64,000 nucleotides of DNA from Cordylochernes scorpioides (taxonomy: Eukaryota > Arthropoda > Arachnida > Pseudoscorpiones > Chernetidae): positions 59,774,252 to 59,838,251 of the forward strand of contig CP092876.1 in the NCBI GenBank assembly GCA_030710605.1, read 5' to 3'. Made by a program: the position numbers and the translations under genes. The notes beneath the pieces are model-generated. The model saw only the letters and a list, made by a program, of their open reading frames with translations, was not told the DNA's origin and made no database searches. Positions 28,601-51,419 of this stretch are shown one piece after another (position 1 is the stretch's first letter; every line of letters begins with the position of its first letter).

Positions 28601-31600
28601 ACATTTCGGTAACAATTTTGTTACCATAATCATACAAAAGACTGCATTAAAAAAAAAATACAGCATGCTTTTAAATAATTACTATAATCAGGTATGTAAA
28701 CATTAGTACACAGTAACCATTTAAAAGCATGATGTGATATTTTTCTCATTCATCTTTTGTCTGATGATTTAATGCTGTTACCGAAATGTCACACTGTATT
28801 TTTGGATTTGGTCTTATCACCCCTTGTTTCTAATCTATAATTCCAATTGTACCTAATTGGTTCTTCTAAGTCTTTAGAAGGAAGGCTAAGCTAGGGAACA
28901 CAAGTGTCACTCAATAATTTAAACGAATGAACCATTCCTCTCTCAGCCTCATACATAGTTTATTCACACAGCTACATAAATAAGGAGATGTGCAAATGGA
29001 GATATATTATTTAGAAACTAGAGTATCAACCCAAGTGTGACATTTCAAGATTAATTAAACCTAAAAATGTGCCGTTGTGTAATAAAAATCAAGCAATTAC
29101 TACAATGCACTCACTATAATGCCATTAAATAACAAAATTGATGTAGTTTGGCTTTGACAACTCTGGATGAATGTGATGGTGCATTGTCATGGTGAAAAAA
29201 CACTTTTTTTTCTTCACCAAATGTGTCTCTTGTTGAAGCCATCTAGTTTTTTTTATTATTATTATTATTATTATCCCTAGTACACGTGGTACAGGCCATG
29301 ATAATCATGATGGGTAGAAGTTGGCGACTGCTTTTACTGTAAGTGTACCACATGTCCACACATGTGAAAAGCAGTTCGACTTTGCACTTACAAATGTATC
29401 AAAGCCCCATTTGGTTACTTGCACTCACTGGTGGGGTTGGACTTTTGCAAGAATTGAGGGCTATTGAAGCATTTTTATTATTTTTTTTTTATTAGAAAAA
29501 CGTGCCCAATGCGGGATTCGATCGTGGGTCGTAGCCGTTGAAAACCAATGGTTTAGACCATCCTTCCACCGACCTCCCAGTCATCTAGTAACTTGCTGCA
29601 GTATTGACCAAGGATGGTTTTCCCTTATCTAAGATGTCTGCAACACCCTTCATATTCCAAAAAAAAAAAAATTATTGCCATAACTAATCATCCAACTGGA
29701 ACCACCTTCTTTGGCACAGATTCCCATAGAGTAACTCCTTCTTGCTTGGTTTAATACTGTCGCAACTCTATTTACAAGAAAAAAAACTTTGGATCTTGCT
29801 TAAATTGCTCCGAACACTGCTTTGAACTTCTTTTGTCCACTGTGAGCAATTGTAGCATCCATCTGGTCTATAGCTTATTTATGTCCAACCTTTTTAAAAA
29901 ATATATATATGTTAAATTAAAAGATATTATTTAAAATGTTATATTAAGATATTATTTAAAATGTTATATTAAGATATTGTTTTATTTAAAAATATATATC
30001 ATAGATAAAAATATTCTGTTAAATCGGCCGCCAGAGGTCATGCTTCCCATATAAAATCACATTGTTGTTCTTCCCGGTTGGTCGGCTCAAACATGTTTGT
30101 AATTATGTAAATAATATTTTGTTTCATTTATTCTTACGCCTTAATCCAGGCAGTACTTGTACAAAATTATGTTTTTCATGTGAATTCATTCCTCAGCTCA
30201 ATAAAGAAATCTCTAATCAAGACATTATATTTTTCAAGATTATTGTTCAACCACGACTGCACCACCATAGCATAATCATCAATATGATCCAAAACAACAG
30301 AAATCTTATCTTTTTTTTTTAAATATAATATATATATATATTATTATCCCTAGTACACATGGTATAGGCCATGATAATCATGGTGGGTAGTTAGCGACTG
30401 CTTTTACTGTAAGTGCACCATATGTCTACACATGTGAAAAGCAGTTCGACTTTTGCACTTAAAATGTGCCAGAGCCCTGTTTGATTACTTGAACTCGCTG
30501 GTGGGGTTGGACTTATGTTCAAAAAAAAATTTCATATAAAATATTAAAATCCATTCCCCACACCTGCTACTTCACACACTTGGGTTTGTCAAACTCATCT
30601 TGTCATGGACTTCAATGGTTTGATTGGTAGCCACATCTACCTGGGTGATCCTCATCAATTGTTTTCATTTCTTCACAGGTTTTCTCATCCTATTGCTATA
30701 ATTTAGCCCTCCTCAGACCACTGGTGTTACTGTCCGCAACCCAATGTCAACAGCTTTGTGTCAGGGTTCACTACCTGGCCGCAAGCCACTCTCAGTGGCT
30801 TCTGTGTAAACAAGGGAGGCTGGCACCGATGTCGCGTTTACTGTAAATTACGTGGGAATCTTACTGAATCATCCTCCACTCCCTCTCACCTCGATTTTTT
30901 ACTTATTTAGCTTGCCTTTTTAAAACTTTTTTCAATGTCGTTTCTACTTCGACCGCTCGCTCCGAATCTCCATTTTTAGATGATTCTTCAATTAAGATTC
31001 TAATCTTGGAGAAGGAGTCAAAGTAAAGGGCAACGAGTTTCTTTTATTTGTGCGGTATAATCAGCAAGCTTTCTGACTATGACGTCCTTCTACAGGCTAC
31101 TATCATTGTTCGTGGCATGAATGTTCAGTAAAAGATACTAAGAAGCACTTTGCCACTTGTCTTGAATTAGTTTATTATCTTTGGGTTTTAGATTTATGAG
31201 TAGCTACCACATGAATTTTATTTAGATTACATGAATTGACTTAGATTTTGATACTAGTGGTAGAGAGAGAGAGAGAAAACAAAAAACTATTAATTAACCA
31301 AAACTAGAAATTTACATACATGTTGATTGCTTTAAAATTTACATATTAAAGATTTATATTGTACAATTGAATTTAGAATATTTTGGCTTAATTTTCATAT
31401 ATAAAATTGAATTTAAGGAAATTATTAACTATAGGATCCAACATACTCCCCCGGCTGGGAAGAGATGACCAGAAAATAAAAAATAAAAAAAATAAATAAA
31501 AATAAAAAAAGAGTTCCAATAGTATAGATGCTGGACTAATTGATTCCGACTATGTAGCTAAGATTACAATTCTCATTGTTTGAAAGGCAATGGAATCAGC

Positions 31601-34600
31601 TTTGTAATGGGTCTCTTGAAGACTCCTTTTGAAGTCTTTATCTGGACTACCCGGACATTCTTGTCCTCTCCTGGAAATATCTCCTGAATCCTAGCCAAAG
31701 GCCAGTGAAGTGGAGATATTTGAGCCTCTTTGAGGTAAACTAGTTGACCTAATTGGATATTGTCTTGTTTGATTCGCCATTTACCACGGCCTTGGAGGTT
31801 GCTCAGATATTCCTTGGGCCATCTTGACCAGAATGAGTTTTTTAGTTTTTGAATCAGCTTCCATCTTTGAGTATCCGATTGAGGTGAATCTTGGATGAGA
31901 TTTTCAGATTCGTTGGCCAGTTCTCTTTCGGGAACTGCTGGATTATCAGACTCTGCAGCTGCAAAGTCGGATTCAATAGGATCTTCCCAAGGTTTTGATT
32001 CAGCCTTTATGCATGAGCCTTGTTCGGTCGATTCCTCTAAATGTTCTTTGGAGAGTTGTCGACTTTCTGCCGCCTTCTCAAAATCTTCCAGATTGACTGC
32101 CTTTTCTAAAGCTTCGGGTCTTAAGACTTCTTTCTTCAAGATTTCTGGCCATTCTATATATGCCGATGAACTGTAATTTTCATCGTCGTCTTCAGATTCC
32201 TTGACGTCTTCTAAGCATAGAGAATCGATGGGTTTCCAACGGGATAATTTAGCCTTTTCACCGCTCTGTAGATAATCCTTTGTTGATGTATCCACAATTT
32301 CAACAGGTACAACTTTCTCTTTGCTTGACGATTCATTAGCTTCTGTATAAACATTGATTATGCCACTGGTAGCCTCTTTAGGTCGATTAAGATCAGCTTC
32401 AACTACATTGAGGTGAGCTGAGTCATCATGGCACAGTTCTTGCTTATCCAGAGCTTCTACACTGACCACTGGTTCTTTCGAATATTTGCCTTCCGATTTA
32501 TCAATAACCGAAACTTCAGAGATTTCAATCTTTGGAGTCCCGATATCTTTGTTAGACTCTTCGTCTTCAATGACAAAAGTGGTTTCTAAAATTGAAGAAT
32601 CTTCTTGATTCTCATCAATAGCCTCAGGAATGTCGGCATTCTCAGTTAAGAGATTTTTGATAAGTGATTCCTGGCGTGGGGATTTTGGTTGTAAGAGAGG
32701 GAATTTTTGATTTTCATTTAAATAGGAATACTTGAGTCTACCTCCAACTCTTAGAAGTCCTTGAGTGTCTAAAAAGGGATTTAGAGAAGTTAGCTTGTTG
32801 GACAGAGGTAGTTGCTTGTTTGACTTCAGTAATTTTATTTCCGTGCAGAATTCAACTTGCTGGATTGATTTGACTAAGACTTGAATTGCCTTTGTTAATT
32901 CTCTTGTTGTCAAAGGTCCTTTCTGACGAATTGGATCAAAGAGGAGGCAATTGTAGTAGAATCTCCAACACCAAGCTGTTATTCGGATCAATTTGGTCAT
33001 TGTGGAATACCTTTCAATGAATTCTAGATTTAACATAGTTTCTGAATTTTGAATTAAGGTTGTTTGATCCAACACTTGACCCTCACCGACTTCTTCTTGA
33101 ATGATATTGAGATTTACTTGGGTTGGTGAAGAAGGAATATATCGAACATTATTTTCTTGAAGCCAAATAGGACCCCGCCACCAAATTCTATGATTGACCA
33201 AGTCTTGAGGCATGATTCCTCTTGATGCGCAATCAGCTGGACTATCTTGACTGGATACATGGAACCAATCAGTGATTTGAGTCAAATTTTGAATTGACGA
33301 CACTCTGTTCGAAACAAAGGCCTTCCATCTGCTGGCATCTGATCTTATCCAATCTATGCAGATTTGTGAATCAATCCACAAAAAGGTTTTGTCAGGTTGA
33401 AAAGGAAATGATTCAAGAATGACTTGATTCAGTTGAGCCAAAAGCAATGCTGCACTTAGTTCAAGTCTTGGAATTGTAATGGTCTTTAATGGTGCAACCT
33501 TAGTTTTTGAGGTTATCAGATTGATTTTGATCTTTTGAATTTTGAATCTAGTTTTCAAGTAAAAAACTGCTGAATAAGCATTAAGGGATGCATCACAAAA
33601 TCCATGTAGTTGTAATTCTTCTATTTCAGAAGATGAACTGTTCAGGTATCTTGGTATTTTGATTTCCTTTAGGCACGATAGTTGAGTTTGGAATTTATTC
33701 CAATTTGACTTTATATCTGATTCAATTGGTTCATCCCATGAAGTTCTCTCAGCAGGAAGTTGACGTTTTCGCCTATAATAGGGTGGTGGCTTTATCTTAG
33801 GAATAATCGAAGTTTCTTTCTTAGATGAGAGTGGTTCACTTGACTGAGAAGCGAGAGGTTGTTCTGGAGTGGATGGTTGACTTGATTCAGAAGGAAGTAA
33901 TTGGTTTTGTTTAGAAGTAATTTGTGGAGTTAACTTGGAGATACGTGACCTTTTAGATTTACTTGGAATTTCTTCAGATTTACTTGGATTATCTTCGGAT
34001 CTACTTAGATTTTCTTCAGATTTACTTGAATTATCTTCAGATTTACTTGGATTTTCCTGTAGCCCTTTTTCCAATGCTTGAGATCTTGAATCACCTAAAT
34101 TGGGTGTTGATTTAAAAGGGAGATTGACTGAATATCTGCCCTCAATGTCTCTTTTGAGGTTTGACTTGAATAATATCTCACAGGCATTCTTTGTACCCAA
34201 CTGGGCCTTAGAAATTGGGACATCTTCAAGTTCCCAGAATTTTCTTATGCTGGAATCAAGTTCAGTGGTACAGTGGTTGATTACCGAAGTATTCGACTTA
34301 ATAGTTGAATGGATTCTCCCAGAAACAAGCCAACCTAACTTGGTATTAAGTGCTATAGGATGGTGCTTTAAATCTGTTTTATGACCTAGAATTATTTCTA
34401 CAAAGGTATCTGCACCCAAAATTAGGTCTATGGGCTTGGTGACATAGAATTCTGGGTCTGCCAAGAGCAAATTTTCTAAATGAGGAAAGTCTGCTGACTG
34501 AATTTGGAAGTTTGGAAGGTCTGCAGTTACCCTCCCAACCACAAATGCTCTGGCAGAAAATAATTGATCATTATGATGTGGGGTGAACTCTATTTCAACC

Positions 34601-37600
34601 TGCGATGTTGTCCTGTTGACAACAATGTCACCTACACCTTTTAGTGTATAAGAATTTTTCCTTTTTTCAAGTTCCAACTTGTGGCAACATTGTTCTGAAA
34701 TTAGGCTTATTTGGGACCCATTGTCCACTAATGCTCTACATAGCACAAATGAGCCATCCTTCGCCTTGACTTTAATAAGGGCTGTTGACAGTAGAATATT
34801 TGTTTCCGTTTCCAAAGGCATCGCATTACAGATGGTATTTGTTGAAATCAACATCTCTTGAGAGGTTGTTGGTTGTGGAATGGATGGTTCAGAGTTGTAT
34901 TCATGCAGAAGAGTATGATGGTTCTGCTTGCAGTTTTTACATCTTGATGTGATGAGACATTTGGATATCTCATGATTTGCTCTAAGGCAATTTTGACAAA
35001 GTTTATGTTTTTTAACTAATTCCCATTTTTTAGGCAAGGGAAGATTTATGAATCTCTGGCAGTCATTTAGTTTATGAATTTGATGACATAAAATACAATT
35101 TTGACCTTTGTTGACATAAAGGCCATGAGCCATCATATTTTTGCTAGAGATTTTTTGTTCCTGGAACAAAGGAATTCTCATACCTTGCAGGCTTCTAGCA
35201 TGTTTTTCTAAAAAATTCACAAAGTTTTCAAATGTTGGATATTCTTCATTTTGAAGGGTTAATTCCCATTCTTTCCTGAGGGCTTCACCGATTCTTTTTT
35301 CAAAAAAATTGATCAGGATTAGATCTGTTAATGTGTTTTTCTCAAGTCCTAGCACTGAGAGATTTCTAATGCCTTCATTGCAAACATCAAGGATCTCATA
35401 GAGAGAACCAGCCGAAATAGATTTTAATGGCCTTATGGAGAATATTTTGTTGATTTGTGAAAAAGCCAATTCTCTTCTGTTATTAAATCTATTGCATAAG
35501 GTATCCCATGCTTGCTGGTAGTTTTTGTCAGAAATGGGAAAACCCCGAATCAACTTTTCCGCAGGACCCTTAACAGATGCATTTAGATATTGAAATTTTT
35601 GTATTTCCGTTAGTGTTTGATTTGAATTGATGGTGGAGTTAAATATTTCTCTAAAACTAAGCCAATTGGCTGAATCACCATTGAAAATGGGTAAATTTAT
35701 CTTAGGTAAATTAACATTGGATTCGGGCAGTTGTTTATCACTATGAGTATTTTCTTTGGTTTCAATCAAAGATAAAGCCTCTTCAATAGACACCAACATA
35801 TTAAAAATATCCTTTTTGGCCTTTGAATAATCGCCATATTGTGTATCATCTAACTCTGATTCTAATAATGTGTTGATAACTTGATTTAGGCTAATTTTCC
35901 TTTCATTAACTTCTTGTTGGAATAGCTTTAATCTATGTATGTTTTTGGATTCTACAATAGCTTCATTCTCTGATTCCAGATCCTTTATTTCCTGAATAAT
36001 AAAGTTGAATTTGTGCCGAATTTTAACTTCTGATTTAGGCATGACTTTATTTTAAGAATTTTAAGTTTTCAAATGGCTTACCTTAATTTTTTAAAGTATC
36101 CGACTCGATGAGGGACCATAATGTTCGTGGCATGAATGTTCAGTAAAAGATACTAAGAAGCACTTTGCCACTTGTCTTGAATTAGTTTATTATCTTTGGG
36201 TTTTAGATTTATGAGTAGCTACCACATGAATTTTATTTAGATTACATGAATTGACTTAGATTTTGATACTAGTGGTAGAGAGAGAGAGAGAAAACAAAAA
36301 ACTATTAATTAACCAAAACTAGAAATTTACATACATGTTGATTGCTTTAAAATTTACATATTAAAGATTTATATTGTACAATTGAATTTAGAATATTTTG
36401 GCTTAATTTTCATATATAAAATTGAATTTAAGGAAATTATTAACTATAGGATCCAACAATCATTGTAAAACGACATTTGAAAATTATCCCTCATGTGTTT
36501 CTTTTCAACGAAAAATCAAAGTTTATTTTAAGGAGAAATAACGATTATTTCTAACCTTAGCGATGAGGTATGGAAGGATGAAATGTGAAGAGTAATGATG
36601 AACGGAAAAATAAAAGTGTCCAGGGATGGGAATCGAACCCACATTGTTTTGCTTACCGGGCAGATGCCATGTCCACTAGGCTACCCTGGAATAATTTTCA
36701 AATGTCGTTTTACAATCACAAGCCGCATTATATTATATTGTATTATAAAAGGCTACTATCAGTTAGTTGCCTGTTGAAGGACGTTCTCATAAAAACTGTA
36801 AAATGGTTGAGAAAAATATTTTTCTGGGACCTAGAAGTGGTTACTGTCAACTCATGCATCCTATACACCTAGAACATGAAAATAAAGGACTAAGGCCAAT
36901 TTGACATGAAAAATATCTCAACATTTGGTGCAAGAACTTGTGGAATGAATGTCCAAAACGTATGAAAGCTTCAACTTCAGCAAGCTAGGAAAGGATGGCA
37001 AATCAGTTCCACAAAGCTAACATCCAGACTGTCAAAGAGATCAAGGTCTATTGTCTCCAATCCACACCTGGTGGATAGAGAAATAACATTATTGTGAAAC
37101 CTGTAGTGACAAACCTGCTCTTCATTTTGGGGATTGTTTCTGGAAATACCTTACTTTATTGAAATATAAATTAAAGTATCTATTATTTTTTGTGCATTTT
37201 TATTATTGTATGCACTATTAAATATATTTCCATTTGTAAAACATAATGTTTTCCATTATATTTTATAATGTAGGGGTTTAAGGGAAGATGCACAAGCGGA
37301 TCTTATTACATGCACAGTAGGGATAATTTTACTGTTAATTTTCATTTTGATGTATTGTATACAGTTGATCATTAATAAATTATGTTTGAGTTATCAAAAC
37401 TGCCTTCTTTTTTTTTTCAGGCACAACAACGTGTGAACAGGTACAGCTAGATGAAGCAGAGTATCAAACATAAAGTTATCTTGACAAGTATAGATTCCGT
37501 AGCGATTGGATGTTTGCTAGAATCCTTTTAACAAATGTCTGTTAGGCAATCTTTTACGTGGGTAAAAACCGGGCGAAGCCGGGTACATTCGCTAGTTATA

Positions 37601-49810: not shown

Positions 49811-50067
49811 CAGTTTATATATATTTTTATTACCAAATTGTAAATAATCACATTTATCTTTATAAACATGACTTGAAGTTGCACCGCATAAGTTTCTTTT
49901 TTTGTGAAAAATCAATATTTTATTTCAAAGAGAAATATCTAGTATTTCTAACTTTTTAGATGACGTATGAGAGGGTGGAAATATGAAGCGTAATGGTCTA
50001 TATATAATTGGATGACGTATGAAAGGATGAAAATATGAAGAGCAATGGCGAATGGAAAAATAAAAGT

Positions 50068-50140
50068 GTCCAGGGGCGGGAATCGAACCCACAACCTTCT
50101 GCTTACCGGGCAGGTGCCATGTCCACTAGGCTACCCTGGA
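50068..50140 (-). tRNA. tRNA-Thr(GGT)-like sequence, unit 1
   Basis: Minus strand: TCCAGGG/CCCTGGA acceptor stem, A-box-like tagcctagtgg, loop CCGGTAA, B box ggttcgattcc. Position 33 is C rather than T, so decoding function is doubtful. Confidence 0.55.
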
Positions 50141-50417
50141 CATATTTCTCCGTTCGTAACTAATACTTTAAGTAACTTATAATACATTGTAAAGGACTGC
50201 GGCGTATGATTATAAACAATACTTGAAGTTGCACCGCATAAGTTTCTTTTTTTGTGAAAAATCAATATTTTATTTCAAAGAGAAATATCTAGTATTTCTA
50301 ACTTTTTAGATGACGTATGAGAGGGTGGAAATATGAAGCGTAATGGTCTATATATAATTGGATGACGTATGAAAGGATGAAAATATGAAGAGCAATGGCG
50401 AACGGAAAAATAAAAGT

Positions 50418-50490
50418 GTCCAGGGGCGGGAATCGAACCCACAACCTTCTGCTTACCGGGCAGGTGCCATGTCCACTAGGCTACCCTGGA
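50418..50490 (-). tRNA. tRNA-Thr(GGT)-like sequence, unit 2
   Basis: It looks identical to the copy 350 bp upstream. Confidence 0.55.
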
Positions 50491-51043
50491 CATATTTCTC
50501 CGTTCGTAACTAATACTTAAAGTAACTTATAATACATTATAAAGGACTGCGGCGTATGATTATAAACAATACTTGAAGTTGCACCGCATAAGTTTCTTTT
50601 TTTGTGAAAAATCAATATTTTATTTCAAAGAGAAATATCTAGTATTTCTAACTTTTTAGATGACGTATGAGAGGGTGGAAATATGAAGCGTAATGGTCTA
50701 TATATAATTGGATGACGTATGAAAGGATGAAAATATGAAGAGCAATAGCGAACGGAAAAATAATTTTATTTTATTTTTCCGTTCGCCATTGCTCTTCATA
50801 TTTTCATCCTTTCATACGTCATCCAATTATATATAGACCATTACGCTTCATATTTCCACCCTCTCATACGTCATCTAAAAAGTTAGAAATACTAGATATT
50901 TCTCTTTGAAATAAAATATTGATTTTTCACAAAAAAAGAAACTTATGCGGTGCAACTTCAAGTATTGTTTATAATCATACGCCGCAGTCCTTTATAATGT
51001 ATTATAAGTTACTTTAAGTATTAGTTACGAACGGAGAAATATG

Positions 51044-51116
51044 TCCAGGGTAGCCTAGTGGACATGGCACCTGCCCGGTAAGCAGAAGGTTGTGGGTTCG
51101 ATTCCCGCCCCTGGAC
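51044..51116 (+). tRNA. tRNA-Thr(GGT)-like sequence, inverted arm
   Basis: The same sequence on the + strand in the right arm of the palindrome. Confidence 0.55.
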
Positions 51117-51419
51117 ACTTTTATTTTTCCGTTCGCCATTGCTCTTCATATTTTCATCCTTTCATACGTCATCCAATTATATATAGACCATTACGCTTCA
51201 TATTTCCACCCTCTCATACGTCATCTAAAAAGTTAGAAATACTAGATATTTCTCTTTGAAATAAAATATTGATTTTTCACAAAAAAAGAAACTTATGCGG
51301 TGCAACTTCAAGTATTGTTTATAATCATACGCCGCAGTCCTTTATAATACATTTATCTTTGTTTGATTTATCTTTGATTCTTGTAACAATTAACTAAGAG
51401 TGTCAATAAAATATATTGA

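What the first reader, a model, noticed from the sequence alone, without database searches (positions are those of the whole stretch)
31107..36458. A recently moved BEL/Pao element whose RT and integrase cores are replaced in frame by low-complexity protein
Seen: 337-bp LTRs that look identical, a 5-bp duplication (ATCAT), and one 1489-codon frame. Residues 664-765, where the RT palm with its YxDD box should be, are Ser/Lys/Glu-rich with SKSE-type repeats. Residues 1121-1390, where the integrase zinc site and DDE core should be, are acidic. Gag, protease, RNase H and the C-terminal domain around them are still aligned with the BEL order. Inference: not simple decay, because two separate enzyme cores are missing while one frame is kept open across 4.5 kb. 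It may be a protein-coding parasite of an autonomous BEL element, keeping gag and spending the rest of its length on packaging, or an element with a new function for the spacers.
Basis: partly seen in the sequence, partly recalled or inferred. Interest (0 to 1): 0.88.

Follow-up and report, generated by a model that had tools for sequence, protein, structure and literature searches.

The report
Enzyme-less BEL retrotransposon with spacer modules
In a pseudoscorpion genome, a multi-copy jumping gene has had its two copying-and-pasting enzymes replaced, in frame, by floppy filler protein, yet keeps its capsid protein and has jumped recently, most likely by borrowing enzymes from complete relatives in the same genome.

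Summary
The window (Cordylochernes scorpioides) holds a 5,352-bp BEL/Pao insertion with identical 337-bp LTRs, a 5-bp target duplication and one 1489-codon frame. Residues 667-766 replace a 302-residue RT region; residues 1121-1392 replace a 278-residue integrase region. No RT or integrase remnant was found in any frame. It is not one decayed copy: all 25 LTR-paired elements examined have RT replaced, 24 have integrase replaced, 23 have perfect target duplications, 24 have LTRs with at most three substitutions and 19 keep one open frame. Complete relatives (1703-residue frames, identical LTR pairs) share the primer site (one with a variant), polypurine tract and 94-96% of the LTR. All four combinations of RT or spacer 1 with integrase or spacer 2 occur as recent insertions with open frames. 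Gag and spacer 2 show purifying selection, RNase H less clearly; spacer 1 is too short to test. Best reading: a semi-autonomous BEL family making Gag, protease and RNase H, moved in trans by enzyme-bearing kin, working like wheat Sabrina_SA and Quinta. The in-frame swaps, 2x2 modularity and a spacer shared with a second BEL family are unusual. What the spacers do is not shown.

The parts
31102..31106 (.). target-site duplication ATCAT, left copy
36459..36463 (.). target-site duplication ATCAT, right copy
36122..36458 (-). 5' LTR in element sense, 337 bp
   Evidence: identical to the other LTR
31107..31443 (-). 3' LTR in element sense, 337 bp
36104..36118 (-). primer binding site (TGGTCCCTCATC...), shared with 4 of 5 RT-bearing relatives fetched; the fifth lacks three bases
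31444..31454 (-). polypurine tract next to the 3' LTR (CCGGGGGAGTA)
   Evidence: same in L046-L050
31573..36042 (-). single open frame, 1489 aa, Gag-protease-spacer 1-RNase H-spacer 2-DUF5641
34045..36042 (-). Gag (DUF1759 at 35260-35688) and protease (VDNGSQ motif at 34711-34728) plus the start of RT
33745..34044 (-). spacer 1, residues 667-766, Ser-rich with 21-nt SKSE-type repeats, replacing RT
32683..33744 (-). RNase H region (most of Pfam Peptidase_A17), D-E-D-D residues present
31867..32682 (-). spacer 2, residues 1121-1392, acidic, replacing the integrase zinc site and core
31576..31866 (-). C-terminal DUF5641 domain, residues 1393-1489

Best explanation
This is a young copy of a large, recently active, semi-autonomous BEL/Pao family. 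It encodes Gag, protease and RNase H in one long frame, but has two probably disordered spacers where RT and integrase should be. Its RNA is most likely packaged into particles together with RT and integrase from complete or half-complete members of the same family, whose LTR ends, primer site and polypurine tract it shares, and is copied and integrated in trans (inferred). Shown: the structure, the family, the matching partners and signs of selection on the frame. Inferred: co-packaging, movement in trans, and template switching as the way spacers were swapped between family members. The spacers probably serve as soluble linkers that keep the polyprotein in frame (inferred, weakest step).
For: 25 of 25 LTR-paired elements have RT replaced and 24 of 25 have integrase replaced by spacer 2; 23 of 25 have perfect 5-bp duplications; 24 of 25 LTR pairs have 0-3 substitutions. 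19 of 25 keep one frame across the element. RT+integrase relatives L046-L048 (1703-aa frames) and RT+spacer 2 relatives L049-L050 (1611 aa) have identical LTR pairs and the same polypurine tract; 4 of 5 have the same primer site; LTRs are 94-96% identical to the window. dN/dS among RT-less copies: Gag-protease 0.35, RNase H 0.43, spacer 2 0.41. Variants shared by two or more copies, pooled over four modules: 40 synonymous of 97 (24.3 expected), 0 stops (5.1 expected). RNase H D-E-D-D in 30 of 30 copies examined.
Against: No expression or particle data, so movement in trans is inferred. 6 of 25 copies have a broken frame. Selection on spacer 1 is not shown: 6 synonymous of 18, P 0.30, and a wrong frame gives a lower ratio (0.45) than the real one (0.60). 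RNase H is not significant over all variants (P 0.22), only among shared ones (P 0.037). Spacer 2 is significant over all variants (P 0.012) but not among shared ones alone (P 0.086), and its stops (3, all private) are about the 3.9 expected. P values are one-sided and uncorrected. Selection seen in Gag and RNase H could be borrowed from RT-bearing copies by recombination.
Confidence: 0.82

Rival explanations
1. Plain decay: a dead BEL copy whose RT and integrase were overwritten by unrelated DNA, with the frame open by chance.
For: RT and integrase are gone; single copies do break (6 of 25).
Against: Identical LTRs, a perfect duplication, many copies with the same spacers, spacer 1 in frame in 24 of 25 copies, signs of selection on the frame.
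Confidence: 0.02
2. A pure cheater: the proteins of the RT-less copies do not matter; the frame is open only because copies are young and recombine with RT-bearing relatives.
For: Copies are young. Window-type copies carry the RT start of RT-bearing relatives up to residue 666, where long-type copies do not, which points to recombination. Stops in spacer 2 are not depleted (3 seen, 3.9 expected).
Against: Spacer 2 is absent from the complete elements fetched, so its signal cannot come from them, yet it shows dN/dS near 0.41 and 28 synonymous of 75 against a fraction of 0.25 expected (P 0.012). RT+spacer 2 elements could still be a source.
Confidence: 0.12
3. A mutual, multipartite system: RT-less copies supply Gag and protease, RT-bearing copies supply enzymes, and an RT-bearing subfamily with an altered protease depends on the others.
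For: All four module combinations exist with open frames. 6 of 25 RT-bearing copies examined have Lys in place of the presumed protease Asp, against 0 of 22 RT-less copies; two of the six, L046 and L048, have identical LTRs, perfect duplications and open frames.
Against: The motif is DNG, not the usual D-S/T-G, so the catalytic role is assumed; other RT-bearing copies (such as L047) keep the Asp and could be the donors. The 25 were picked from 56 places for their long open frames.
Confidence: 0.25
4. Spacers are captured host gene pieces with a function of their own.
For: Codon-like composition, no stops, signs of selection on spacer 2.
Against: 35 of 35 spacer 2 relatives and 28 of 28 long spacer 1 relatives are C. 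scorpioides proteins. 30 of the 35 also carry another module of such elements; P0129, P0133, P0137, P0141 and P0146 showed only spacer 2, though P0146 matches the second BEL family. The searches were limited in protein length and to shared five-residue words, and the genome search for divergent spacer 2 did not complete.
Confidence: 0.15

Closest known systems
Wheat RLG_Quinta with RLG_Cereba (Ty3/gypsy); PMC11302176, passages seen
   Same: Non-autonomous LTR element that keeps a Gag frame, lacks RT and integrase, shares LTR ends and primer site with an autonomous partner, and has an extra domain of unknown function
   Different: Plant Ty3/gypsy, not BEL/Pao; the passages seen do not describe in-frame replacement of two enzyme cores, a retained RNase H region, or a 2x2 set of combinations
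Wheat RLG_Sabrina_SA with RLG_Wilma; PMC9744471, passages seen
   Same: 'Semi-autonomous' element encoding Gag and protease but no RT or integrase; other variants carry unique coding segments
   Different: Almost no detectable sequence kinship with its partner beyond short motifs, whereas here the shared modules are about 91-99% identical
Plant TR-GAG elements (search listing only; definition recalled)
   Same: LTR element with Gag and no pol
   Different: The papers listed are on plants; here pol parts remain on both sides of the spacers
Culex LTR elements with tandem repeats; PMC3286476, passages seen
   Same: Non-autonomous arthropod LTR elements with internal tandem repeats
   Different: They lack coding sequence and have no known partner

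Membership tests
BEL/Pao LTR retrotransposon | LTRs with a 5-bp target duplication | tested here: met
   23 of 25 copies perfect
BEL/Pao LTR retrotransposon | DUF1759-type Gag | tested here: met
   E 1.2e-29
BEL/Pao LTR retrotransposon | Aspartyl protease | tested here: inconclusive
   weak matches below cutoff; motif VDNGSQ rather than D-S/T-G
BEL/Pao LTR retrotransposon | Reverse transcriptase with YxDD | tested here: not met
   absent from the window; present in L046-L050 of the same family (YVDD seen in L046)
BEL/Pao LTR retrotransposon | Peptidase_A17 / RNase H region | tested here: met
   E 1.9e-36 over profile positions 32-162; D-E-D-D kept
BEL/Pao LTR retrotransposon | Integrase zinc site and DDE core | tested here: not met
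   absent from the window; present in L046-L048 and L013 (D, D and E motifs in L046)
BEL/Pao LTR retrotransposon | DUF5641 C-terminus after integrase | tested here: met
   E 9.5e-35; deleted in 23 of 25 copies
Semi-autonomous (Gag-encoding) LTR element | Intact Gag frame without RT and integrase, many copies | tested here: met
Semi-autonomous (Gag-encoding) LTR element | Autonomous partner with matching LTR ends, primer site and polypurine tract in the same genome | tested here: met
   (primer site of L047 lacks three bases)
Semi-autonomous (Gag-encoding) LTR element | Mobilisation by the partner | not testable with these tools
   needs RNA, particle or movement data
TRIM or LARD (non-coding LTR elements; definition recalled) | No coding sequence | tested here: not met
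   1489-aa frame with Gag under selection

The most novel reading that the evidence does not exclude
A cooperative, multipartite retrotransposon in an animal: one BEL family split into interchangeable members in which RT and integrase can each be swapped for a disordered protein cassette that is under selection, spreads by recombination between two distant BEL families, and lets Gag/protease donors and enzyme donors (some with the presumed protease Asp replaced) depend on each other.
Probability: 0.25. Interest if true: 0.82.

Novelty: new variant of a known kind. Interest (0 to 1): 0.62.

Why it matters
Non-autonomous LTR elements are usually described as empty or decayed. Here two enzyme cores are exchanged in frame for coding filler, several combinations have moved recently, and complete partners can be named in the same genome. 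That makes the question of cheating versus cooperation among retrotransposons directly testable in an animal. The spacer shared between two BEL families also suggests that such cassettes can travel between families.

Tried and rejected
Decay of a single copy was rejected. RT or integrase remnants in other frames were sought and not found. Pfam and solved-structure searches with spacer 2 gave nothing above cutoff. An AlphaFold2 model of spacer 2 had mean pLDDT 38.7 and pTM 0.15, so no fold search was run. Insertion near tRNA genes was considered: 2 of 25 elements lie within about 160 bp of one, with flanks of only 300 bp for 13 elements and no background rate, so nothing is claimed. Apparent loss of the RNase H region in some predicted proteins starts at a good splice acceptor and was treated as a gene-model artefact. 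The shared loss of DUF5641 has no GT donor and sits on a 9-bp repeat, and is seen in the DNA of copies, so it is a real deletion. A first variant count was polluted by misaligned stretches and was replaced, which cut Gag-protease to residues 1-610 and dropped L013 and L042 for RNase H. One search gave higher ratios for Gag-protease (0.55) and RNase H (0.57), with those stretches included. The RT-bearing versus RT-less dN/dS for RNase H and the RT-bearing branch of the RNase H tree include a misaligned stretch of about 31 residues and are not relied on. One element beside an assembly gap (L022, C24) has only one LTR and was left out of the 25. The number of integrase-bearing copies in the genome, and a genome search for divergent spacer 2, were asked for and never obtained.
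Full report
What is there. The window lies at C14:59774252-59838251 of a 2.62-Gb genome in 24 contigs. The length of C14 (91,489,810) equals that of a Cordylochernes scorpioides contig in the protein search, and among the 120 hits listed of 291 only proteins of that species are nearly identical, so the host is taken to be this pseudoscorpion (taxonomy). The element has identical 337-bp LTRs, an ATCAT duplication and one 1489-aa minus-strand frame. Pfam finds DUF1759, protease matches below cutoff, most of Peptidase_A17 and DUF5641.

The spacers. Against a complete relative, residues 667-766 replace 302 residues of RT and residues 1121-1392 replace 278 residues of integrase. RT and integrase searches find no remnant in any frame. 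Spacer 1 is Ser-rich with 21-nt repeats; spacer 2 is 26% Asp+Glu. Both fall on the disordered side of the charge-hydropathy line, but so does the DUF5641 end, so this test alone is weak. Spacer 2 models at pLDDT 38.7 from 14 sequences. Both are coding-like: no stop in frame and lower G+C at third positions.

The family. The LTR search scored 40 of 1270 candidates, all 94-100%. The spacer 2 search scored 40 of 765, all 99-100% over the 792 bp queried. The unscored candidates are not confirmed copies. The 40 LTR places resolve into the window, 24 other elements with two LTRs, and one place beside an assembly gap that was left out. All 25 lack RT. Twelve have the short spacer 1 and 13 a long one, with 30-nt and 21-nt units; the stretch is a multiple of three in 24 of 25. 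One (L013) keeps integrase and 24 have spacer 2. DUF5641 is deleted in 23. Sixteen LTR pairs have no substitution and 24 have at most three; L037 has 16; 23 target duplications are perfect. Nineteen keep one frame; L009, L012, L021, L026, L030 and L037 do not.

The partners. RT at 92% or more occurs at 56 places of 139 scored (11,093 candidates), then identity drops to 60% in what looks like another BEL family. Five were fetched whole, chosen for long open frames. L046-L048 have RT, integrase and 1703-aa frames; L049-L050 have RT and spacer 2 and 1611-aa frames. All five LTR pairs are identical; four of five duplications are perfect (not L047). The polypurine tract is the same in all five. The primer site is the same in four; L047 lacks three bases, as do three RT-less copies. 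LTRs are 94-96% identical to the window by MAFFT (92-95% by blastn). So RT or spacer 1, combined with integrase or spacer 2, gives four types, each found as at least one recent insertion with an open frame; the spacer 1 plus integrase type rests on L013 alone in DNA, with P0012 and P0014 as gene models.

Selection. NG86 dN/dS among RT-less copies (L013 and L042 left out) is 0.35 for Gag-protease, 0.43 for RNase H and 0.41 for spacer 2, and 0.58 for spacer 1; RT among five RT-bearing copies is 0.12. In one search the codon bootstrap for spacer 2 was 0.24-0.77, and its wrong frames gave 0.73 and 1.65; for spacer 1 it was 0.17-3.57, and one wrong frame (0.45) was lower than the real one (0.60). 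Counting each variant once against a flat ts/tv null (kappa 1.75 from 60 LTR variants): Gag-protease 43 synonymous of 117, P 0.002; spacer 2 28 of 75, P 0.012 (shared only 11 of 29, P 0.086); RNase H 23 of 76, P 0.22, but 10 of 22 among shared variants, P 0.037; spacer 1 6 of 18, P 0.30. Pooled, 4 stops are seen where 15.0 are expected; no shared variant is a stop (5.1 expected); in spacer 2 alone 3 stops are seen against 3.9. P values are one-sided and uncorrected.

How it arose. In the RNase H tree, copies with integrase but no RT (L013, P0012, P0014) sit between RT-bearing proteins and the rest, which would fit loss of RT first, but several nodes have low support and the RT+spacer 2 elements show that another order or recombination is possible. 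The short spacer 1 type keeps the RT start of RT-bearing copies up to residue 666, whereas the long type breaks earlier. This fits template switching between co-packaged RNAs (inferred).

A second family. Eight predicted proteins (P0139, P0140, P0142-P0145, P0147, P0148) carry a spacer 2 relative (44-83% identical) followed by part of a different integrase. Where a long Gag stretch is present it matches at only 23-25%. Pfam shows no RT in the four scanned (P0140, P0142, P0145, P0147); P0148 has a weak RT-like stretch (29%). The cassette therefore sits in two distant BEL families. The direction of transfer is unknown. These are gene models; their DNA was not fetched.

Known relatives and novelty. 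Wheat Sabrina_SA and Quinta are described as semi-autonomous or partly mutualistic Gag-encoding elements with partners (passages). The present family works like them and is BEL/Pao by Gag, RNase H, DUF5641 and its relatives, though RT and integrase, tested, are absent from the window copy itself. Searches for BEL or Bel-Pao with non-autonomous or semi-autonomous elements listed nothing that appeared to describe this; of their hits only PMC3286476, PMC9744471 and PMC11302176 were opened, for passages, and only the listed part of each result was seen.

Noticed in passing
L046, L048, L052, L056, L060, L066: 6 of 25 RT-bearing copies examined have Lys where the presumed protease Asp stands; 0 of 22 RT-less copies do. 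L046 and L048 are recent insertions with open frames.
   Followed up: partly
P0139, P0140, P0142-P0145, P0147, P0148: A second BEL family in the same genome has a long spacer where RT, RNase H and part of integrase would lie, and it includes a relative of spacer 2.
   Followed up: partly
31576-31866 and the copies in L009-L044: DUF5641 is deleted in 23 of 25 copies at a 9-bp repeat (AAGCTGATT); the window copy keeps it.
   Followed up: yes
36104-36118: The primer site of most copies, including RT-bearing ones, has an ATC insertion that L030, L032, L041 and L047 lack; the shorter form resembles a tRNA-Tyr primer site (recalled).
   Followed up: no
36618-36690; L012 5414-5484: A tRNA-Thr-like gene lies about 160 bp from the 5' LTR, and a tRNA-Gly about 40 bp from another insertion.
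   Followed up: partly
50066-51118: Three tRNA-Thr-like genes within about 1 kb, identical over the Rfam match, perhaps a tRNA-derived repeat.
   Followed up: no
P0009, P0128, P0150: Public gene models named CCT6A, SYT12 and TRAF4 in C. scorpioides are fused to pieces of this element, so the annotation carries transposon sequence.
   Followed up: no
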